Assembly (NCBI GenBank): GCA_021209875.1
Contig: JAGYVD010000005.1
Span: 2,821,001-2,885,000, forward strand
DNA: 64,000 bases
Source of the DNA: Rosellinia necatrix
Taxonomy: Eukaryota; Ascomycota; Sordariomycetes; Xylariales; Xylariaceae
Reading direction: 5' to 3'
The notes below the pieces were generated by a model. That model worked only from the letters and a program-made list of their open reading frames with translations, was not told where the DNA came from and ran no database searches. This document shows, in pieces, positions 25,656-41,133 of this stretch. The stretch's first letter is position 1. Every line of letters begins with the position of its first letter. The position numbers and the translations under genes were made by a program.

Positions 25656-27074
25656 TTAAACCTCGCTTGATGGATCATCGTTCCTTCGTCCCGGCAGTTT
25701 CGCCTCCTCTTTAATCTTGGCCGCGAGGTAAATACCTTCGAGGATAAAGGGTGCCCAGAACTCGTGTTTGTACTTTTCTTTCCATTCTGCATTTGGAGTC
25801 ACGACCCCTAAAGCTTTATTTTTCTCAGGCGGAGAATATTTAGCGATATGGTTCATTGCTTCTAAAGTAGCTGTCTCCCACTTGGCACGACCAGGCCCGG
25901 CGACAAGAATCGGGTCCATCCACTTTATGGCTTCCGGTGCGAACTGGCTTCTATCTTCTTGTGCCTTCCCTTGTGAAAGAGCAAACGTGTCCGGGTTGAG
26001 CGCGACGATTGTGTTGAGAAGTCCCCTCCGAGAACTTACTGTGGTGCAGTAGCGTTCGATTTTGATACCAGCATACGATTTCATCCACTTTTTGGCGCCC
26101 TGGTCAGGCGGCATCCCATAGGCTTGCATAAATATACAAAAGGCGATCCAGAAGGTAATGAAGTATGAACTCCAGTCCTTTACCGCCGCCGCTCCGAGAG
26201 CGATTGCCCACTGACCTAAGATGAGCACCCTCAGAGTCATGCGAAGACCGGCGGCGAGGGCCGGCCTATCTTGCGAGCTTAGAGGTTTCAGAGGCCGGTT
26301 GAGTAAAGAATTGATAATAGTAGATTCTCCATAAAACGCGACCCAGTCAGTCGTGTTCTCATGCTCGGCGACCAAGACCAAACGGTTCCACGGTGTTGGT
26401 TTCTCGACGAGCAGGCGTCGGGGGTTGCTTCCGTGAAGCGCAAAAACGACGATGCCTGTTATGGGCATAAGAACAAGGAATGCCAATGATAGCCAGGTTT
26501 GTAGGATGCCGCTCATCACAATCATCCCTAACAGGACTATCCAGCCACAAGCATCCGCCCATCCCATTGTGGCCGACCGGGGGAAGATACGACGCGGCCA
26601 TGCGGACGAGGTCTCACGCCTTTCGAGATGTGGAAGGCGAGAGACATGGACGACTTCGAGTCTCTGCAACCTGATATCATCGTCCTTCATATTTTCGTGC
26701 AAATTTTGAACATTATGGGCGGGGTGAGCTCGAAGACACATGCGGATTGTCTCGGGGCTGCTGAGATAGTATCGACTACCAAAGCGGCCATCTAGGCCAA
26801 GTAGGCCGATGCTCTTGCCAAAGCGATCTAAGTAACAGTGTTGGGGCGGAGGCTGATCTCTGGACAAGAGGAGTCGGCTTCCGGCGGGGGTGATCGGAGA
26901 GTTCCATAACGCGGTAAATCCTGCGAGCTGGTGTACGTGAAGTTTCGGTGGTAGATCGATGAATTCGATGAGAGCGGATAGGGGGAGTATACCAGCCAAC
27001 TCCGCTACCCAGCCATTCCGGCTCAGGATGCCAGCGAGCTCCTTGATAGCTTGCTCAAACATAGTGGTTGACAT
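25656..27074 (-). CDS. Membrane protein A of the HET/membrane-protein pair (unknown function)
   Basis: Single-exon gene of 472 codons with no family I recognise. The N-terminal half is soluble and includes ELAGILPLSALIEFIDLP, TPAGSRLLLS and LDRFGKSIGLLGLDGRFG. Four hydrophobic segments lie in two hairpins at about residues 176-193, 195-214, 281-299 and 303-320, with a conserved loop between them (DWVAFYGESTIINSLLNRPL). The tail carries RRGLLNTIVALNPDTF and a charged end (AAKIKEEAKLPGR). It is clearly paralogous to the gene at 35947-37293: the same blocks occur in the same order. It is transcribed divergently from HET protein A, 1.4 kb away. Pairing suggests a shared role, perhaps a membrane partner or effector for the HET protein; this is inference. 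The start MSTTMFEQ is the first Met; a second Met four codons on is equally possible. Confidence 0.75.
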   Translation of the reverse strand: MSTTMFEQAIKELAGILSRNGWVAELAGILPLSALIEFIDLPPKLHVHQLAGFTALWNSPITPAGSRLLLSRDQPPPQHCYLDRFGKSIGLLGLDGRFGSRYYLSSPETIRMCLRAHPAHNVQNLHENMKDDDIRLQRLEVVHVSRLPHLERRETSSAWPRRIFPRSATMGWADACGWIVLLGMIVMSGILQTWLSLAFLVLMPITGIVVFALHGSNPRRLLVEKPTPWNRLVLVAEHENTTDWVAFYGESTIINSLLNRPLKPLSSQDRPALAAGLRMTLRVLILGQWAIALGAAAVKDWSSYFITFWIAFCIFMQAYGMPPDQGAKKWMKSYAGIKIERYCTTVSSRRGLLNTIVALNPDTFALSQGKAQEDRSQFAPEAIKWMDPILVAGPGRAKWETATLEAMNHIAKYSPPEKNKALGVVTPNAEWKEKYKHEFWAPFILEGIYLAAKIKEEAKLPGRRNDDPSSEV

Positions 27075-28455
27075 TTACCGAGCGGTGAAAAGATGAAGAG
27101 GAGGAGGCGATATCGTGACACGCAGGGCGTACTTTGCATGATATTATCTTCGCAGAACCCAAAGAGCGGCGCAGCTCCCGTCCTCCAGGATCCCTTACAG
27201 CTCCAAAACCCATAATTTAGCGCGTCAATACAAGCACAGGATGGCCATAGGCATGCGATCGTTTAGGGGGAACCGGCTAGGCCTCCAGCCGCAGTGTAAT
27301 AGCCTACTAGGAAACCGGATCAGCTGACAGCTGCGTTTATGCGGCAAACGTCCTATCTTACTCGGACTTGTTCGTTTTTGAGCCTTGACAGCTAGCAAGA
27401 GCGGATACTTCATAATCAATGTATCGGAGGATTATGAAGCAATATAGAGCCTAAAGGTCTACTTCGGCACCCTAGAAAGTAGGATTGAGCTGTACCTGTA
27501 GATTGGGCCCTCTGCGATCGTTGCCCCTGCGACTCCAGATCCGACTTCCAACTTCCGGTGGCGGGTGGTGATCTGACACGTCGCTCGCGCCGACGCAGCA
27601 AGCTAGCATTCTATCCGATTTGCATTCTAAGCCCTGGATGAGAGAGTGTGTCAGTTTCAAACACGTTACATACATATTCCTTTAGCTGTTTTCGGTATAT
27701 CACCGGCAGGAGAGCGTGCAAAGCATCTATTGGCACGTCAAAGCAGGCAAGGGATTTATCTCCACTTTCCTCCATCACTGGACGCACTATAACAACTGTG
27801 GCGGTATTACAGGGGTTGGTAAGAAGTTATGGTGCATGTGTAAAAACGAAATACTATAGGTCTATGTTTGTATTCCTCAATGGCCTCGATAACTAAAAGA
27901 GAATATTCCTTCAGCAATTATGGGTGGTGATACGTTTAATCTTGTTAAGCTTCAATATACTATAGTTATGTAGACTACCGTATAACTAGATAATAACTAG
28001 ATTTAGTTATATGATATGTCTTCAACTTATGACCTATCTCAAATGCCTACTTTGGCCCCAATATCGTATTTAATAACCAATAACTAAGTTCTTCATATCC
28101 AAGCGCTCTTGGGGTACCTACTTACCTGCCTTATATCTTGGGTGATGTAAATGCATGATCGCTCAGGTACCTATATAGTTATAAGTACCTCTGCTGCTAC
28201 TGTAGGTACCTAGGCACAGGTAACCTACCTGGGTACTTACTTAGGTAGGTAACTGTAGGTAACTACTTAAGTAAACTACCTACCTAGTGTAAGCGGGAAG
28301 GGCAGCAGCGGGCTAAGTAACCTAGCGTGATGAGGGCTGGTGGAAAAGTGGAGTCGAATTTCTACACACATCATCTCTCTAGCTAGCTGTTCACGATTTA
28401 CCCACGACTCGTGATTGTTATCCCCAAATCAAGGCGACTATTCAGCTAGGCCTCC
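27075..28455. other. Divergent intergenic region between membrane protein A and HET protein A
   Basis: Shared upstream region of two divergently transcribed genes. It is AT-rich around 27900-28080 and has a dense ACCTAGGT-type motif cluster at about 28170-28290, within 300 bp of the HET-A start. No RNA or ORF is supported. Confidence 0.55.
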
Positions 28456-31400
28456 ATGTGTCTTGGTACCGGCGAGCCTGTTCTCATTACGACGTCCCCA
28501 TTACGTGACAAATCTCCTAAGTTCACTTTCAAGGATCCCAGCGACCCTGGCCAGCGTGATTTTGGTGTCAACTTGCTCACGCCGCTCGAGACTCCGGGGC
28601 ATCTCGGCCCTTTTCTAAGGGCGCAGTTTGATGGCTGGAAACCTGACCGGGAACCTACAGAAGCACTTATTGAGGACTTGAATAGGTGCCGGAATGGAGA
28701 GTACTATATGCGAGGGTGCGTCACCCAGATGAGGCGCGATATACCATGTTTTCCGGAAGAACCCCAATGCTATGGACAGTCAACGTTCGCCAATGCGTTT
28801 AAATACTGGTATTTCTCGGGTGTACGGTCTTGCGATAACTTAACGTGTAAAGCCAGGAAGGAAGCCCTGGAGAAGTCTGCGCCCGAATGCGGCTGGGCTC
28901 CCTTTCGAGATATTGTCTTGACTTGTATTGCCTGCTGGCGGCCAGCGTATGAGGTACTGCCTTTCGATATGATGCTCCCAAAGGAGGACGATACCGTTCA
29001 TCCTCCGGGGGCCTTTTGCATCGACGTTCGCGGGATGGTCAATCTATGGCTCTGGGCTACCCGTCTTATGTCCGGGCCTGTTAGTCAATTAGTTCAAGAG
29101 CTAGCCATGAAGGGGAATTCTGACGACGCGTTTTTTCGACTCTGGCAGACGTTTAAACCCGACCACAACTTGCGCGCTACGGCAAGTTCGCAGAAATTCC
29201 ACGAGCGTGGCTTTTGTGTCAATCGCCTCTGGAATGTTTCGTTCCAGAGCAGACGTGGCATAGCAGATATTCCTTACATAGTCGAGAAGGCCCTGGAATC
29301 CTCGGCCTCCAAATCTGGGAGTAAGCATATGGACTGCACCGAGGAGAGTTGTCTGATTGCCCACGAGAACAGCACGCTCGTCAAACAAGCGCACAAGTGC
29401 CCCTCCGGATCATGCTCCGACGAGGTCGCTTTCCCTCCCGTTGTACTGAATAAAGCTTTCGATTTCGGTGCTCGCACCTCGCCCCTAGGCGCACATCCAT
29501 TTGAGATTACCGCATGGCGCATTCCGGGACCTGGCCAAGAACCATCTTCTTTGTGCACTCCCTGCGATGACTACGTCGCTATTTCTCATGTATGGTCCGA
29601 TGGCACCGGTGTTGGGATGAAATCGGGTGCAGGCATCGTCAATGCCTGCCTTTTCGAGCATTTCTCAGATATTGCTAATCGTGACGAGGTGTCGTGTAAT
29701 GGCGTCTGGTGGGACGCAATCTCTATCCCGACAGAGCGCCACGCCAGAGCTATCGCCATGGATAGCATGCTCGAAAACTACGAGAACGCCAAGGTGACTG
29801 TGGTCCATGACCAGGATTTGTTGGAATTTGAATGGAAGGAAGATGGGAGTCCTGCTGTAGCCATGGTTCTATCGTCTTGGTTCACGAGGGGTTGGACGGC
29901 AGCTGAATTATGGGCTTCGAGAGGCCACCCTGTGAAAGTTCTCTTCAAAGACCCCAACGATCCAACGGGGCAACGGCCACTTATCAAGGACCTGGACATG
30001 GACATCTTGGCCGGAGACTTATCTCGCTGGTTTGATCCCGAAACCGAGGGACATCAAAGCCCGTATAATAACCGCGCATTAGCCCCGACAGACACACTTC
30101 CCGAATTGGCTCATATGATTGCGACCGATATCCTAGCTTTATTTCGCTGGACCGAACACCAAACAATTCCAGACTTGCAAGCTCTTCTGCGCATGCTACA
30201 GACACGGGTAACCTCCTGGGCACGCGATCGTACCCTGATTGCCGCCTTACTGTGCCTACCGCGCGATGCAATCGACTCGACTACTACTACCCCTCAAATG
30301 ACGCAGAAAATCTTGGCCAATTTTGGAAGCCTTAGGACTACGGAAATCATTAATCATCGGGTGCCAATGTCTAGCGATGGGCCTTGGGACTGGGCCCCTC
30401 AGTCAATATTTGAGCTTGGTCAGTGGTCGCTATCAAACGACCCAATGGGGGGCTGGTCTTATATCCAAGAGAATGGTAGCATCAAATGCGAGTTCCTAGC
30501 TTACGAGGTCCTACAAGAAGATGTCATCACCGAGTATCGCCACCACCCTGCTCTCGCAGCTCGAATATCGGTCGCCCTGTCAAAAAGACGGAGCTGCCTG
30601 CTGTTGACAACGCGAAGGATCCAACAGGAAGATACGTACATTCTATTCCAACCCGTTTCCGTCACCGCTTGGATGGTTATGGGAAGATGGATAGGATGCG
30701 TTTCTTTAAAAACTCAATTAGGAGCATCCAGGCGCCACCTGCAGGTCTGGAATAAAGATTCGAACGGCAGAGATATCATCGGATTGAGCCCACCTACTTA
30801 TGTGCTTGGTAAGAGTAGGAGCAGCATCGGGAAATCGCTGCCTGTAATGAATTTCGAATCTGCGTTTTTAGCTCTGGAAGCTCTCAGGCGGAATACATCG
30901 GCAGTGATACCGAAGACATGGTGTTTATCAACTAGCAACCTTGAGGTATGTTCCCGCTAACGACATCGTAACAAACCTAGATATTAACATCAAATTTAGG
31001 AGCCATTAATTTCGCCACCTCAACCCGTTTACATTTACGGGCCAAGTGCCGGCTTGATACTCAATATTGGCAGAACGGGGCCGACTCATCCATCCGGTAC
31101 GGTTGTCTTCGATACTAAGGGCCATGACAATTGGATCCGGTTATCTTTCTTCTCGGGGCTCATTGACTCCCTTAACCTAGATGAAATGGTAGCCTGCCCC
31201 AAGGACCACGACGGCTGCAATGGTATTGCGACGATCACTTGGTCTTTACCTTGTTCGGAAGGTGATTATTATGCGTGCTGGGCCGTCGTGCCCCTTGTTT
31301 ACACATCTGCGTTCCACGTCACCACTAAAATTCACGCCGCGGGGGGTAATTACGATATGGCCATCGGATCGGGTACTTTCAATGATGATATAAAAGCGCA

Positions 31401-31482
31401 TTTGATTCGGAATGAAGCGCCTGGTACATATCTGCAGACCTGCAATCCATGCGGGAAATGCACGAGCTGTCTAAAGAAATAG
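28456..31482 (+). CDS. HET-domain protein A (heterokaryon incompatibility type)
   Basis: Large HET-domain protein. HET domains trigger vegetative incompatibility and programmed cell death in filamentous ascomycetes. Exons 28456-30945 and 31000-31482 are joined by a GTATGT...TTTAG intron in phase 0, giving 990 residues. The HET blocks are AISHVWSDGTG (from about 375), WWDAISIPTE (418) and SSWFTRGWTAAELWAS (473). Before them comes a cysteine/histidine-rich part with CGWAPF and the block DCTEESCLIAHENSTLV followed by HKCPSGSC, which could bind metal. After the HET core are about 500 residues without a known domain. The last residues form a C-x2-C-x2-C-x2-C cluster (CNPCGKCTSC) that HET protein B lacks. 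No NACHT, WD40 or ankyrin repeats are seen, so it is not a classical NLR. It converges with its paralogue at 31761-35123, 278 bp away, and diverges from membrane protein A. Partner and trigger are unknown. Confidence 0.87.
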
Positions 31483-31760
31483 ACTATCGGCTGGCTAGTT
31501 TCAAAGCTCGTTAACTAGAACGTGATATAGGGAGGGCAAAGTGAATCAATTTATCAACCGGACATTTGAACACCCTACGGAGGCGAAAACGAAAGCATAC
31601 ATAACATACGTTTGAGGTAAGGTGGGGACGCGCTGGATTAATTGAGATCTAAACACGAACAAATGCATCTCATCTCCTAAGACTCTTATTGTAGCTAACG
31701 CATGTAGGGCCAAGGCGGAAATCCCCGCATGCTGCATGTTTCCATCTCCGCCTGGAATCA

Positions 31761-34700
31761 TTAGAGCCCAATGTCTTTGAATATGCTATCAAATGTCGGG
31801 CCCTTGATGGCGTCGCCGAGGTTGCCGTGTGATGTGTATTTCCTCGGACATCGTTCATGAAGAAGCTCATCCTCCTGCAGCGGCTTATTCCAGTCGAGGA
31901 TCTCTGCAGAAATCTCTCTTATGCTAGACGTTAGAACCTGGACGTCCCTATCCTTTTCTACGCCATCGCCCCGTGCTCTGACGCAACGTGTGGCTATGTG
32001 TTTTGAGTATGTCAGCCACCCTATTCGCATGTCAGTCTCTGTCCAACCGGTCTCCATGACATGAAATGGGGACCGGAATATTCTTCGAAGTATTGGCCCG
32101 TCAGTAATAGGTGCGTGAGGAAACGACCATGCCAAATGTATGATTCCCTTGCAGCCACGGTGACTAATCTCGCAACGTTGCAAAACAGACTCTTCCTTGG
32201 TGTAGAAGGGTAGCTTCGACACAATCAAAGGATCCAGAGCATTGTGATCTCGGCTTTCGTCTATTATTGCGTGGAATGAAGGGTGAATATCTCGTTCGTG
32301 ATCGTCTAATCTCTCTGTCGTATTCGGTGGATATACACATACAGGCTGGGGCCGCCTTTCCCATTCCACCTTGCCCTACCCATAAGATTAGCATCTCACA
32401 TTTGTGGTTAGGAAGGCAGGTTTGGGATTCCGCACAGATTTTTCAGTTTGCATGCCTATAACCCATTTACAGCTCCCTCTTCGATCTATTGTTGCTCTTG
32501 CGAAACTAGACAACGCTGAACTGACTGCTGTTGGCCGCATAGGCGGTAGTAAGCGGTTCTTTTCATCCGCATCCGCCCCGAAGAGGAATTTCACAGACCC
32601 AGTTCCCCAAAGACGAAGTCTCATATTTGAATATCCGAGCTCCTTGGCCGTTACAAGTGGTTTATCTAACGCCGCCTTAGGGGGCTGATATGGGTCAATA
32701 GCATTTGGTATGCCCAAGTAAACGCACCCAGCCCAGTGACACGATATGGCTAGCGTCCTTCCAACCCAACCCACCCAGACGGGACAGGCGAGGATATACT
32801 GGCGGTGAGATTGATCTCGGTCATCCGGGTCTGTAAGGAGAAGACAACTCCACTTGTCACGCAGAGCTTCTGATATGCGGGAGCTCACAGCTGGGTGCCG
32901 CCCGAAAGGCACTACGACGTCATCTCTCTTGAGGGTGTATGCTGTAAAATCTCCAAGCAGGAGCCCTTCTTTTAAAAGGGTGCATTTTGAAATGGGACGA
33001 CGACTAAGCGAGTTTTGCGATACCCCTAAATCAAAGATGGACGGGGGGCACCACGACCATGCTCCGCTAGGGTTAATCGGAACCTCGCCATGGAATAGAT
33101 CACTGCAAAGGATCGTCCCGAAGTGCGAAAGTATATCTCGAGTGATTTGGGGGCCCGTGGAGTTAGAATCGATTGACTCAAGACACATCAACCCTGGAAT
33201 AATAAACAGATCTTTGACCCAGGATGTCACGCGAGCGCGCAGGTTAAGTAACAAATCGCGTAGGTTCGAGGTGGTAGTAATGCCCGAGGCACCACCATCC
33301 CGTAAGCGTCGAAGGATGTCGGTGGCAACGAAATGACCGTAGCTTGGGACCAAACCCTCTCGGTTGAGCAAGAAATCTCCTCTAATCTGGCCAAACGCAT
33401 CCAGTGCGGCCAGGTCATCGAGGTGAACGGAGCGCATGCTTTTCGGATCCCAAGCGAGAATGTCTTCGTCCAAATCCTTGATCAGCGGCTCTGTTTTTGT
33501 TTTGTCGGGATCCTTGAATAGGATCTTGACAGGATGTTTCCTGGACGCCCAAAGCTCGGCGGCTGTCCATCCTCTGGTAAACCAGGATGAGAGTATAACA
33601 GCAACCGCCGGGCTTCCGTCATTTCTCCATTCAAAGTCGACTAGTTCGCGATCATGAACCAATGTGGCGGCTGCGTTCTCATAGTTGACTAGCATGTTAT
33701 CAATCGCCGCCGCCCGCAAGGGCCCGGTTGGGACGGAGATGGCATCCCACCAGATCCCACAGCAGTCAAGCCTATGCGCGATCCCGGAGAAGTAGTTCAT
33801 CAAGCAGGTATTAACCTCCCCGGAGTCCCTACTGCGCTCCCCAGTTCCGTCTGCCCAGACATGAGATATCGCCATGTATCTCTGCCCGATCACGCATAAT
33901 GAAGGTTTGCCACCCCCGATACGCCAGGCCGATGGAGCCCATGGACGGCCTTTTGGACGTCCCTCCGCCACCAGCCCTGGGGAACCGAGTGCTGCATTCA
34001 GAATGTTCTTCGGAAATATGGCCACCGGGCCACAATCTTCGGACGCACAGGCGTGATGCTGTGGTACTAGTGTACTGTTTTTGTGACTGAAGAGGCAAGA
34101 TTGCTCTGTACAGTCTAAATGCGGGTTTTCCTGGTCGCCAACGCCGATCTCGTTTCTCAACGCTACGGCCGCAATGCTTGGAAGATCGGCGACCCCTCCT
34201 ACCCCTAGCATAGAGACATTCCATAGTCTGTTGGGGCAAGGGCCTCGCAATCGGCACTGCTGCGTAGCTTGGAGTGCACTCGTCTCATAGTATGAACCGA
34301 GGCGGGACAGCAGCCCTTCGAGTTGGTTGTATGCCTGCGTTTGCTGCCCCCGAAGACGCGGTTCGTCGCTCCAGTTCCCTCCATATGCGATGCGAAACAC
34401 CCACCGACACAGGTCAGCCACCCCATCAACATTGAGACACACTACGCGCGGCAGTTCCTCGACCTCAAAAACAGTATGGCGGTGGCCACGCTTATCGACC
34501 TTGAAGTCGTCACGCAGGATGGCCCTGCCATCCTCCGGTATCAGGTCGAGTAGGACTGACAATATAAGCTGGATGAAATTCGGCAACCAGCAAGCCAGCG
34601 CCCTCACTGCCAGTGCCTCGAGCGCTGGCCATCCGCACCGAGGGACGGCCTTGTCCAGGGCGATCCGCCGCTGCTCGCAAATGTTATCCCGGCATTCTCG

Positions 34701-35123
34701 GAGCTGTGTAACCTTGGAGATCACAAAGACGTACGCGAGAATCTCCTGACCCAGGCATTGGGGATACTCTCGGAACCCACTGGTCCGCCGCGTCCACCCC
34801 GGCTGCGCTGTATACTGATCCCAGGTGTGGTGGACCGAATCTATCAGCTTTAGGAACGGGCCTTGGGGATTCCGGATGTCGGAGAACAATTTGAGCCCGA
34901 GGGTCTCGCCTTGTACATCATTTTCGCAATATTCGTGGACGCGGGTCAAGTCCAGCCGGCTCGGTAGGAGGAGATTGGTGTCGAGGGAAATGTCGCTAAA
35001 ACACTCGGCGACAGACTGGCCAGGGGTATTATATTTCCAACACCTTATCTCATAGTCGTCCTCCGTAAATGTAACCACGGGCTTGCTGAGTACCTGGCCG
35101 ACCCAACCTTTGGATTTGCACAT
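31761..35123 (-). CDS. HET-domain protein B, paralogue of HET protein A
   Basis: Second HET-domain protein, about 1100 residues. Exon 1 is 35123-32436 and exon 2 is 32375-31761. The intron (GTGCGG...GGGTAG, 60 bp, with a TGCTAAT branch) is preferred over a 30-bp alternative and falls where HET-A has its intron. The HET blocks are ISHVWADGTG (from 419), WWDAISVPTG (458) and SSWFTRGWTAAELWAS (512). The upstream block CTEQSCLFSHKNSTLV plus HHACASEDC matches HET-A, as do CLGQEILAY, RCGWPALEAL and the C-terminal IIHLAWSFPHAP region. It is longer than HET-A at the N-terminus (MCKSKGWVGQVL...). Identity in the HET core is high, roughly 60 percent by eye, but flanks are diverged, so the duplication is not recent. 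It is transcribed divergently from membrane protein B. Function as in HET-A is inferred from the domain only. Confidence 0.85.
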
Positions 35124-35946
35124 GCTTGTTCGGGATTTACGAGTCTTATAATTTTGGAACGGTAGAAGCAGATCAGGATTCTGACTCTTACTTACTCAAT
35201 GAGTACCTAGGTAATGTTATGGGGACGCTTGACCTCCTCTAACTATCTTATATAACCCCCGCGTCGCCCTCACAGGAAGCGGCCCCCTCCCCCTCCCCCC
35301 CCAAACCCCATTAAGCACTCAAATTATTTACTCATGGCCTAGTATTCGCCTCTTTTTTTTTTTCTATCTCGAACACCTCGCACCAAGCGCAAATATGAAT
35401 AGCATACTTGCGCATCTGGATATCGTAACAAGCACCCGGTCAAACTCACTAGAACGTACAAACTCGACGAATTGGTGTACCATAAAACCTGACGATCGGC
35501 ATGTAAGTAGTAAGCTCTTGGGGGCTTGGACGCCACGGTTTCGCAGCTGATCTCGGTAGGCGGGGACGAAGCCCGGCCCGTGGGGGCCAGACTCGTTCTA
35601 CCAGACTCGTTCTACCACATCTTCGTAGGCAACTTGCCTTCAGCCCCCAGGTGAGGAAACGGCAGTTTGCCTCTTCCGAACCCCTCAGGGCCGCCCCATT
35701 TCCCGGGCGTCTACCGCGCGTCCTAGCTAGGACTATAGGATCGGGACACCACTAGTGAAGGAGTGATGCCTGCTATAACAAGACACATATTGTGTGCGCC
35801 AATCTATTAAGACCGCTCGACCTGGATAGCTGCATCGCCCCCCAGCTCGGCCCGCTTTGCGCTCACCCCTTAAGCCAGAAATACTACACTCGTCAATGTG
35901 TTGACTTATTTCTATCGTCATGGCTTTAAAACCTGTCTAGAAAGCC
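35124..35946. other. Divergent intergenic region between HET protein B and membrane protein B
   Basis: Shared promoter region of a divergent pair, mirroring 27075-28455 but shorter. It has C- and T-rich runs at about 35285-35370 and a duplicated CTCGTTCTACCA at 35592-35618. No ORF is supported. Confidence 0.55.
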
Positions 35947-37293
35947 ATGTTAGAGCATCAGCTTGCGGTATTTAAAGGTCTCGTAAAAGCCTACGATTGG
36001 CCTCAACAGCTTGCCGGGATCCTCCCCCTCTCCGCCCTCATTGACTTCCTCGACGTCCCCCGCGCACTCCATGTCTTTGAGCTGACCGGCTCCGTTCCGG
36101 CGTGGTGCTGGCCCGTCACCCCGTCGGGGAGCCGTCTTCTTTTATCCCCGCGCACTGTCGAGGAACCGTGTTGTCTCGATAAGTTCGGGAACAGCCAAGG
36201 CTTGATCTGCCTGGACGGGCGGTACGGAGACATGTATAACGCGACCAGCCCCGAGACTCTTCGTCTTTGCCTCGCCATCGCCCCGACGATTTCGGTCGTC
36301 AATGACCAGAACACACAGGACCGCCGCCGGCCCCAGAACCTCACGGTCGTTCATGTGACGCGCGCGAACTGCGCAAAGAGGTCCCGCCAGTCCTGGGCTT
36401 TGCTCGGTGCCTCGGCTATCGGATGGATCCTCCTCTTGGGGCTTCTCGTGATGACAGCCATCTTGAGATGCTACATATCGTTTACCTTCTTGCTCGTCAT
36501 CCCACTCACCGGAGGTGTTATTTATGCCACCCGGGGAGGTCATCCGCCCACGCTCAAGGACACCCCCGGGAGCAACTACAACCGTCTTGTGGTCGCTGCT
36601 CTGCACATGAACGAGACGGACTGGTTGGCATTCTATGGCGAGACCACGGTAGTCAACGCACTCCTAAACCTACCGCTGCGGATGAAGAGATTCTCAGGGG
36701 CGAACCACTGGGCGCTCAACGTCGCGCTCAGGCTTCTCATCCTCGGGCAGTGGTCGCTGGCGATCGGCGCGGCCGCCACCCAGGGCTGGGACGCGTATGT
36801 CATCACGTTCTGGATCCTCCTCTGCATCTTCTTCCACGTCTTCATCTTCTCGACCCGGCACTCCTGCCAGGACTGGCTGGAGCAGTCCGCGAGCTTCCGC
36901 CTGAGTCGCATCGAGGTGGAGCTGAGCTCGCGGAGGGCGCTCCTGAACACCCTGGTCGCGCTGAACCCCGACAGCTTCCCGTTCGATCCCGCTTCGCAGA
37001 AGGACGTGCTCGCCGCCTTCTACCCCAACTCGCTGGCCTGGATAGACCCGATCCTCAAGTGCTGCCCTGACCGGTCCGTGTGGGAGGAGGCCACCCGGAT
37101 GGCCATGGCCGCGGAGCGCAATCCCGTGAAGGTCGTCCAGGGGCAGAAGCCCGCGAGCGCAAACGGACCGGCGGAGCCGGAATGGGTAAGTAAGTTCAAG
37201 CAGTGGTACTGGTGTAGGTTCATCTCTGAAGGCATCTTGGTCGCGTCCAAGATTAAGAAAGAAGCCAACCTCTCCGGACGATTCGTCAAATAA
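35947..37293 (+). CDS. Membrane protein B, paralogue of membrane protein A (unknown function)
   Basis: Single-exon gene of 448 residues, paralogous to the protein at 25656-27074. Shared blocks in the same order are QLAGILPLSALIDFLDVP, TPSGSRLLLS, LDKFGNSQGLICLDGRYG, TDWLAFYGETTVVNALL, LRLLILGQWSLAIGAAA and RRALLNTLVALNPDSFPF. Four hydrophobic segments lie at about 152-172, 174-195, 257-277 and 281-302, again as two hairpins. The C-terminus is charged (SKIKKEANLSGRFVK). Its codons, mainly in the 3' half, are richer in G/C at third positions than those of paralogue A, so the copies have had different mutational or selective histories. It is transcribed divergently from HET protein B. No established family is recognised. 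A role as a HET partner is inference from the conserved pairing. Confidence 0.78.
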   Translation: MLEHQLAVFKGLVKAYDWPQQLAGILPLSALIDFLDVPRALHVFELTGSVPAWCWPVTPSGSRLLLSPRTVEEPCCLDKFGNSQGLICLDGRYGDMYNATSPETLRLCLAIAPTISVVNDQNTQDRRRPQNLTVVHVTRANCAKRSRQSWALLGASAIGWILLLGLLVMTAILRCYISFTFLLVIPLTGGVIYATRGGHPPTLKDTPGSNYNRLVVAALHMNETDWLAFYGETTVVNALLNLPLRMKRFSGANHWALNVALRLLILGQWSLAIGAAATQGWDAYVITFWILLCIFFHVFIFSTRHSCQDWLEQSASFRLSRIEVELSSRRALLNTLVALNPDSFPFDPASQKDVLAAFYPNSLAWIDPILKCCPDRSVWEEATRMAMAAERNPVKVVQGQKPASANGPAEPEWVSKFKQWYWCRFISEGILVASKIKKEANLSGRFVK

Positions 37294-40287: not shown

Positions 40288-41133
40288 CGCGACGGGCTGA
40301 TGGGAATGCGCCCCCTGTGCGCCCCGGCAAAGAGGACGGGAGAGGTTGGTGGGACGGTATTCGGCGCAATTGATCGGTGGCGGCGATCAGCCCATCAAGG
40401 GCGTGGTAGGCAGGTGTGATATTACGCGATCGGTCCTATGTTGGTGCAATTCTGCGTGTCATCACATGGCGAAAACGAAACGCGGTGATCAGTCGTAGAC
40501 ACTGAAGCGCGCAGAGGACTTGGATGGACTTGGATGGACTTGGATGGACTTGGATGGACTTGGATGAACCTGGATGGACTATGGATCATGAACAGCGTGA
40601 TCAGGATGATGGGGTTGGGGAAGTCAGTCTAGCGACGAGAAGAGAACCTGTCGCAAAGCTCTGGTTAGGTAACCTACCTAGTCCATGTATGGATGTTCCT
40701 CGGTGATAGCCTGCCATTGCATAGTTAAGTACATATGTACATGGCAACAGCTTGCATGTGATTCCCCAGGGGCCGGTGCTTGGCGGGCTTCAAATAATAA
40801 CACCAGCCACACCAGCCACATATGCTCTTAGTCATGGCCGATACATATTATTCGATAAATAACTAAACTTGGATTAATAAATAAATACAGGGGGAATACA
40901 GTTCCTATATCCGAACAACCGCCCCTCCCGACTGCACCGCGGGGTTGCCGATTAGAATTTCGTGCCTAGGCGGCATTGCAGCCTGCAAGTGGCATTGATT
41001 GATCCTATCTACACTACTACCTCCTATCTAACATCTAACTCATTGCTCACTTTGACGGCTACCCCCCAGAGAACGTCCGCTTGCGTCTTTCGTGATCTCC
41101 GCACAGAGGTCATTCATATTTTTATCATCAAAG
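40288..41133. other. Divergent intergenic region between PXA2 and DPH3
   Basis: Upstream DNA of two divergent genes. It holds a decamer minisatellite at 40516-40580 and AT-rich sequence at 40840-40890. No extra gene is supported. Confidence 0.6.
40516..40580 (+). repeat. Decamer minisatellite (TGGATGGACT)
   Basis: At least four perfect tandem copies of TGGATGGACT, then degenerate copies (TGGATGAACC, TGGATGGACT). It lies about 230 bp upstream of the ABC transporter ATG. Confidence 0.9.

What the first reader, a model, noticed from the sequence alone, without database searches (positions are those of the whole stretch)
25656..37293. Mirror-image HET / four-helix membrane-protein modules
Four genes read membrane-A (-), HET-A (+), HET-B (-), membrane-B (+). 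Each HET gene diverges from a paralogous membrane protein, and the two HET genes converge with 278 bp between stop codons. This is an inverted duplication of a two-gene unit, and both paralogue pairs are clear from shared blocks in the same order. Retained pairing after divergence suggests that the HET protein and the membrane protein work together, perhaps with the HET protein as trigger and the membrane protein as receptor, anchor or effector. HET domains are known in fungal incompatibility and cell death; a fixed link to this membrane family is not something I recall from the literature. Function is inferred.
Basis: partly seen in the sequence, partly recalled or inferred. Interest (0 to 1): 0.88.

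Follow-up and report, generated by a model that had tools for sequence, protein, structure and literature searches.

The report
Linked HET and membrane-protein genes
In this fungus two cell-death-type (HET) genes each sit back to back with a gene for an undescribed membrane protein; relatives of the two gene types lie on the same contigs in fungi of three classes, so they probably work together, but the mirror-image layout is not a recent duplication.

Summary
The four genes and their order are confirmed: membrane A and B are 43% identical, the spliced HET proteins (990 and 1,100 aa) 35%. The genome is Rosellinia necatrix or a close relative. Consecutive gene or model numbers occur in six strains of two classes.
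The simple inverted-duplication story fails: A and B are not sisters in either family (AU p 0.0017 membrane; 6e-35 and 8.5e-6 HET). An ancient joint duplication is only weakly contradicted (p 0.045).
The modelled membrane protein (pLDDT 91) has two membrane hairpins and probably all its soluble mass on one side, which speaks against a surface receptor. The HET protein ends in a retropepsin-like fold without the catalytic motif. Best reading: a HET effector with a cytosol-facing membrane partner, the same kind as het-c/pin-c or Bh/Bp, with a partner family for which nine paper searches showed no description.

The parts
25656..27074 (-). Membrane-A gene, 472 aa, single exon; relatives named 'hypothetical', 'uncharacterized' or 'peptidase family M3' by depositors; no Pfam family
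26433..26576 (-). First modelled transmembrane hairpin of membrane-A (residues 167-189 and 193-214)
   Evidence: AlphaFold2 model, pLDDT 91 overall; hydropathy peak at 195-213 only
26118..26267 (-). Second modelled transmembrane hairpin of membrane-A (residues 270-297 and 300-319)
   Evidence: hydropathy peak at 280-298 only
27075..28455 (.). 1,381-bp region between the divergent starts of membrane-A and HET-A
28456..30945 (+). HET-A exon 1 (residues 1-830)
29215..29415 (+). Cys/His cluster of HET-A (C254, H291, C294, C299, H313, C315, C320), invariant in 40 aligned relatives; metal binding is inference
29572..29955 (+). HET core of HET-A (about residues 373-500) with the R-x-W-T-x-x-E motif
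   Evidence: Pfam HET at 373-451, below cut-off; motif in 116 of 120 listed relatives
31000..31482 (+). HET-A exon 2; with the end of exon 1 it codes a retropepsin-like C-terminal fold (residues 822-979) lacking the D-[ST]-G motif
31483..31760 (.). 278-bp gap between the convergent HET-A and HET-B stop codons
31761..32375 (-). HET-B exon 2
32436..35123 (-). HET-B exon 1
   Evidence: whole protein 97.5% identical to R. necatrix P0171
35124..35946 (.). 823-bp region between the divergent starts of HET-B and membrane-B
35947..37293 (+). Membrane-B gene, 448 aa, single exon

Best explanation
This is a conserved HET/membrane-protein gene association. The HET protein is the likely death or signalling effector. 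The membrane protein is a cytosol-facing partner, built from two membrane hairpins with its soluble parts on one side, that holds or senses on behalf of the HET protein at an internal or plasma membrane. When that partner, or the membrane it sits in, is disturbed (by fusion with an unlike hypha, a mycovirus or an invader), the HET protein is freed or clustered and its TIR-like HET domain starts cell death. Shown here: the genes, recurrent same-contig linkage in three classes, the modelled fold and its layout, and conserved HET, Cys/His and W-x-x-x-E features. Inferred: physical interaction, the cytosolic side, cell death and the trigger. The A and B genes are old paralogues gathered in one locus; they are not the product of a recent mirror duplication.
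For: Linkage: 31 of 156 membrane relatives share an exactly equal contig length with a listed HET relative, over 24 contigs; lengths differing by 1-10 bp give only 3 coincidences in all. In the 22 named strains with both families listed, 28 of 35 membrane proteins and 36 of 70 pairs share a contig against 0.9 expected for 45-Mb genomes. Consecutive gene numbers: Xylographa carneopallida 002117/002118 (Lecanoromycetes), Zarea fungicola g3455/g3456 (Hypocreales), Neopestalotiopsis clavispora g2538/g2539 (Amphisphaeriales), Xylaria curta g4839/g4840; consecutive model numbers, which suggest but do not prove adjacency: Jackrogersella minutella 319649/319650, Annulohypoxylon truncatum 236774/236775. 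A Leotiomycetes contig (Hyaloscypha, 103 kb) also carries both. Fold: pLDDT 91.2, pTM 0.89, four long helices as two hairpins with turns of 3 and 2 residues; Lys+Arg 20, 6 and 23 on the soluble side against 0 and 1 in the turns. HET: 37 of 40 members match PF06985; R-x-W-[TCSV]-x-x-E in 116 of 120. Precedents: het-c (plasma-membrane protein) with pin-c (PMC2988816, passages); Bh/Bp (PMC10890737, passages); the HET domain is reported to suffice for cell death (PMC12881547 and PMC10197012, passages).
Against: Two further close HET relatives in this genome (C1:4688701, C8:75371) have no membrane-family gene in the 17 kb fetched around each, and no third membrane copy was found, so this HET family can exist without the partner. 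125 of 156 membrane relatives have no listed HET on their contig; of 68 on contigs up to 30 kb only 4 share; the lists were cut at the best 120 (of 372 HET, 172 and 236 membrane). Whalleya, Xylaria scruposa and Arthrobotrys entomopaga have both families but no shared contig. No fused membrane/HET protein among 277 relatives, in searches limited to 0.55-1.75 times the query length. Acidic residues nearly balance the basic ones on the soluble side (41 against 49), and a further hydrophobic stretch at residues 23-41 of membrane-A leaves the one-sided layout open to doubt. Physical contact, location and cell death are untested. The membrane protein is well conserved (25 invariant columns in 82 sequences), unlike a fast-changing recognition protein.
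Confidence: 0.42

Rival explanations
1. The membrane protein is the executioner: the HET protein senses or makes a nucleotide signal (TIR-like), and the four-helix protein then permeabilises or remodels the membrane.
For: Hairpin layout with no extracellular domain in the model; conserved W-x-x-x-E in HET; two-gene killer/sensor clusters such as fungal gasdermin with protease or HET-S with NWD2 are known (PMC10197012, passages).
Against: No good match to any solved fold, pore formers and channels included (a weak test); the HET domain alone is reported to suffice for killing; nucleotide binding untested.
Confidence: 0.2
2. The genes are functionally linked but not in immunity: a membrane enzyme or transporter accessory with a HET-type regulator in development or stress.
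For: 25 invariant columns, many polar (H45, D82, D94, R230, N254, R348, E445), look enzyme-like; most HET genes are not known to act in incompatibility (PMC10197012, passages).
Against: No convincing enzyme family or fold match.
Confidence: 0.2
3. Linkage without joint work: HET genes are numerous and mobile and happen to lodge by this family, or old microsynteny persists.
For: 129 PF06985 matches in this genome; the HET types listed with the core differ between species; HET paralogues at C1 and C8 lack the partner. I could not compare with the neighbours of other HET subfamilies, so specificity is untested.
Against: 36 same-contig pairs against 0.9 expected; consecutive gene numbers in Lecanoromycetes and in several orders of Sordariomycetes, where local gene order is otherwise little kept (general knowledge).
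Confidence: 0.13
4. One reading: one inverted duplication of a two-gene unit produced the mirror image and kept the pairs together.
For: Order and orientation are exactly mirror-like, and both pairs are paralogous.
Against: Sister relation of A and B rejected: membrane p 0.0017, HET p 5.6e-35 and 8.5e-6. Membrane-A groups with Aspergillus, Fusarium and lichen proteins, 99% SH-aLRT. HET-B-clade relatives of Xylariaceae sp. AK1471 and Hypoxylon crocopeplum sit on other contigs than HET-A. A very old joint duplication is not excluded: HET-A plus the Xylographa HET is rejected only at p 0.045.
Confidence: 0.05

Closest known systems
Neurospora het-c / pin-c
   Same: A cytoplasmic HET protein of about 900 aa linked to a membrane protein gene (PMC2988816, passages).
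   Different: [quoted passage not shown] Here the partner is a modelled four-helix protein and linkage is seen in three classes. Allelic incompatibility is unknown here.
Podospora het-B (Bh HET-lectin / Bp PII-like)
   Same: HET gene with a conserved adjacent non-HET partner: kept in 28 of 31 taxa, orientation variable; other HET lineages also adopt the partner (PMC10890737, passages).
   Different: The partner is a PII-like protein; Bh carries a C-terminal lectin fold, here a retropepsin-like fold.
Cryphonectria vic loci (vic1, vic6, vic7)
   Same: Two or more linked genes per locus, with a HET gene (PMC7849911, passages).
   Different: Partner sequences were not compared here; I have no allelic data for this locus.
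Gasdermin/protease and HET-S/NWD2 two-gene clusters
   Same: Neighbouring genes split sensing and membrane killing (PMC10197012, passages).
   Different: Pfam found no NLR, gasdermin or HeLo domain in the window proteins or in the members scanned.

Membership tests
HET domain family (PF06985) | Match to the Pfam HET model | tested here: inconclusive
   Window proteins 20.7 and 14.8 bits against a cut-off of 22.5; 37 of 40 relatives match at E <= 0.01, and several carry precomputed PF06985.
HET domain family (PF06985) | Ordered HET motifs (Y-x-A-x-S-H-x-W; W-W-D-x-I-x-x-P; R-x-W-T-x-x-E) | tested here: met
   Invariant or nearly invariant columns in 76- and 40-row alignments; third motif in 116 of 120. 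That these correspond to the HET motifs is recalled.
TIR-like NAD-cleaving enzymes | TIR fold with a catalytic glutamate | tested here: inconclusive
   W480/E484 nearly invariant; the likeness to a TIR W-x-x-x-E is recalled. The whole-protein fold search was filled by another domain.
Retropepsin-like aspartic proteases | Retropepsin fold | tested here: met
   [not shown]
Retropepsin-like aspartic proteases | Catalytic D-[ST]-G | tested here: not met
   Upstream of the W-x-[FLM]-P motif in 1 of 40 relatives that have that motif; absent there in HET-A and HET-B.
Peptidase family M3 (deposited name of the membrane protein) | Match to a peptidase M3 Pfam model | tested here: not met
   No M3 match in any of 82 members at E <= 0.1. 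An H-E-x-x-H motif was not searched for.
het locus (het-c/pin-c or het-B type) | Alleles that trigger incompatibility; polymorphism kept in populations | not testable with these tools
   No population data or strains at hand.
het locus (het-c/pin-c or het-B type) | HET gene tightly linked to a non-HET partner | tested here: met
   Window and relatives.

The most novel reading that the evidence does not exclude
A Pezizomycotina-wide two-component death or immune system: a HET (TIR-like) protein with a pseudo-protease tail, coupled to a membrane-hairpin protein family with no close match found among solved structures, in which the membrane partner (not an NLR or an allelic protein) sets where and when the HET domain fires. 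Loci such as this one combine two old membrane paralogues with exchangeable HET partners.
Probability: 0.3. Interest if true: 0.75.

Novelty: new variant of a known kind. Interest (0 to 1): 0.5.

Why it matters
HET genes can number over a hundred in a mould, yet how most are triggered and what they work with is unknown. A partner family linked to one HET subfamily in three fungal classes gives a concrete, testable handle: delete it, mislocalise it, or co-fold it. A cytosol-facing membrane partner would also suggest that some HET proteins act at membranes, beyond the few allelic incompatibility loci studied so far.

Tried and rejected
Recent inverted duplication: rejected by AU tests. One further test, B-side partners held together, was badly posed because unlinked relatives were left outside the group; its p value is not used. 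The first co-duplication test (p 1.8e-66) rests on long branches and on a contig with two HET genes; the cleaner set gives only p 0.045. In all AU tests the groups were chosen after the first trees had been seen, and the rows were chosen by me: 67 of 157 membrane and 67 of 120 HET relatives in the large trees, then 41 membrane and 36, 30 and 19 HET relatives, plus window and own-genome rows.

Literature: nine searches, read as listings with abstract starts, plus passages of six papers, showed no HET gene linked to a four-helix membrane family and no retropepsin-like tail on HET proteins. The library lacks most subscription papers.
Full report
What is there. The window holds four intact genes in the order membrane-A (25656-27074, minus), HET-A (plus), HET-B (minus), membrane-B (35947-37293, plus). 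Each HET gene has one short intron near its end. The spliced products of 990 and 1,100 aa agree in length with the annotated R. necatrix proteins P0121 (990 aa, 97.2% identical) and P0171 (1,101 aa, 97.5%). Membrane-A and -B are 43% identical, the spliced HET proteins 34.7% over 963 columns. The window lies at 2.82-2.89 Mb of a 4.65-Mb contig; the four genes sit between a saccharopine-dehydrogenase-like gene and an ABC transporter gene, not at a contig end.

The HET identity is real but remote. Both window proteins fall below the Pfam cut-off and are missing from the 129 PF06985 matches of the genome search. Relatives match better: 37 of 40 aligned ones (of 120 listed) at E <= 0.01. Invariant columns include S-H-x-W, G-T-G and W-W-D, and the third motif R-x-W-[TCSV]-x-x-E is present in 116 of 120 listed relatives. 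Before the HET core, seven Cys/His positions are invariant in 40 aligned relatives.

The membrane protein. The family has no Pfam family (none for membrane-A; nine families with at most 3 of 82 members each), and its deposited name 'peptidase family M3' has no Pfam support there. The model is confident (pLDDT 91.2, pTM 0.89). Four long helices form two hairpins with turns of 3 and 2 residues; the 166-residue N-terminal part, the 55-residue loop and the 153-residue C-terminal part then fall on one side, with 49 Lys/Arg (and 41 Asp/Glu) against 1 Lys/Arg in the turns. By the positive-inside rule (established knowledge) that side is cytosolic. The assignment rests mainly on the model: a hydropathy scan marks 2 of the 4 helices in A and 3 of 4 in B, and in A also a stretch at residues 23-41 outside the four, which could alter the layout if it enters the membrane. 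A protein with almost nothing outside is a poor candidate for a surface receptor. No solved fold matched well.

Linkage elsewhere. The three protein searches gave 157 membrane and 120 HET relatives, most with contig lengths and some with species and gene numbers; the lists were cut at the best 120 of 172 and 236 (membrane) and of 372 (HET). 31 of 156 membrane relatives with a contig share an equal contig length with a listed HET relative, on 24 contigs. In the 22 named strains with both families listed, 19 have at least one shared contig; 28 of 35 membrane proteins and 36 of 70 pairs share, against 0.9 expected for 45-Mb genomes. Misses: Whalleya, Xylaria scruposa and Arthrobotrys entomopaga have no shared contig, and four further membrane proteins of linked strains lie alone. 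Six strains show consecutive numbers: Xylographa, Zarea, Neopestalotiopsis and Xylaria curta (gene numbers), Jackrogersella and Annulohypoxylon truncatum (model numbers, a weaker sign). Classes: Sordariomycetes, Leotiomycetes, Lecanoromycetes. Against this, 125 of 156 membrane relatives had no listed HET on their contig, and only 4 of 68 on contigs up to 30 kb share; short contigs and the cut HET list may explain part of that.

History. Membrane-A belongs with Aspergillus, Fusarium, lichen and Diplodia proteins, membrane-B with another deep group. Holding the locus's A and B together costs 143 log-likelihood units (p 0.0017). For HET it costs 180 (p 5.6e-35) and, in a careful tree of 21 rows, 51 (p 8.5e-6). 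HET-A is sister to HET relatives of which one lies with a B-side membrane protein (Ustulina contig 142413), so the trees are not simple mirror images; the decisive grouping with the lichen HET is only weakly against joint duplication (p 0.045). Membrane-A, HET-A and membrane-B occur together on one contig in five strains (R. necatrix, Ustulina deusta, Biscogniauxia marginata, Annulohypoxylon truncatum, Jackrogersella minutella); strain FL1272 is an exception, with its HET-A-clade gene on another contig. The further HET listed on such contigs is of HET-B type in R. necatrix, Annulohypoxylon bovei (which also has another type) and Rostrohypoxylon, and of other types in A. truncatum, B. marginata and FL1272; same contig is not proof of the same locus. 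In Xylaria curta membrane-B has the next gene number to HET-A on a 14-kb contig. In Xylariaceae sp. AK1471 and Hypoxylon crocopeplum the HET-B-clade gene lies on another contig than HET-A.

Mechanism and comparison. HET/partner pairs are a known kind: het-c/pin-c with a plasma-membrane partner, Bh/Bp with a PII-like partner kept in 28 of 31 taxa, vic loci. The best reading is the same kind with a new partner family: a HET effector held or sensed by a cytosol-facing membrane protein. Linkage and structure models are shown; interaction, side, death and trigger are inferred. HET relatives at C1 and C8 of this genome lack the partner, so the partner is not needed for every member.

Noticed in passing
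HET-A residues 822-979, window 30919-30945 and 31000-31446: Retropepsin-like C-terminal fold without the catalytic D-[ST]-G; the W-x-[FLM]-P motif that marks this region is found in 40 of 120 HET relatives.
   Followed up: partly
G000:C1:4688641-4691705 (L017) and G000:C8:74524-77767 (L019): Two more members of this HET subfamily in the genome, one beside a nucleoporin gene, the other 75 kb from a contig end with a citrate-synthase-like ORF close by; no membrane-family gene in the 17 kb fetched around each.
   Followed up: partly
L018:552-1289: A 245-aa ORF with several hydrophobic stretches (by eye) about 0.85 kb downstream of the C1 HET paralogue; only its own copy was found in the genome, and it shows no relation to the membrane family.
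   Followed up: partly
P0081 and P0087 (Fusarium falciforme NW754_000294 and NW754_000291): Two membrane-family genes only three gene numbers apart on one contig, perhaps a similar two-membrane-gene locus in Fusarium.
   Followed up: no
P0001, P0029, P0058, P0061, P0107, P0112: Depositors named this family 'peptidase family M3'; no M3 Pfam match in any of 82 members scanned, so the name looks like propagated misannotation.
   Followed up: partly
HET-B residues 177-195, 303-321, 777-795: Three hydropathy peaks above 1.4 in HET-B, none in HET-A.
   Followed up: no
window 40506-40585: Imperfect ten-base tandem repeat (GGACTTGGAT) near the ABC transporter gene.
   Followed up: no
window 28190-28290: Dense run of ACCTACC/TAGGTAGG-like words upstream of HET-A (read by eye).
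   Followed up: no
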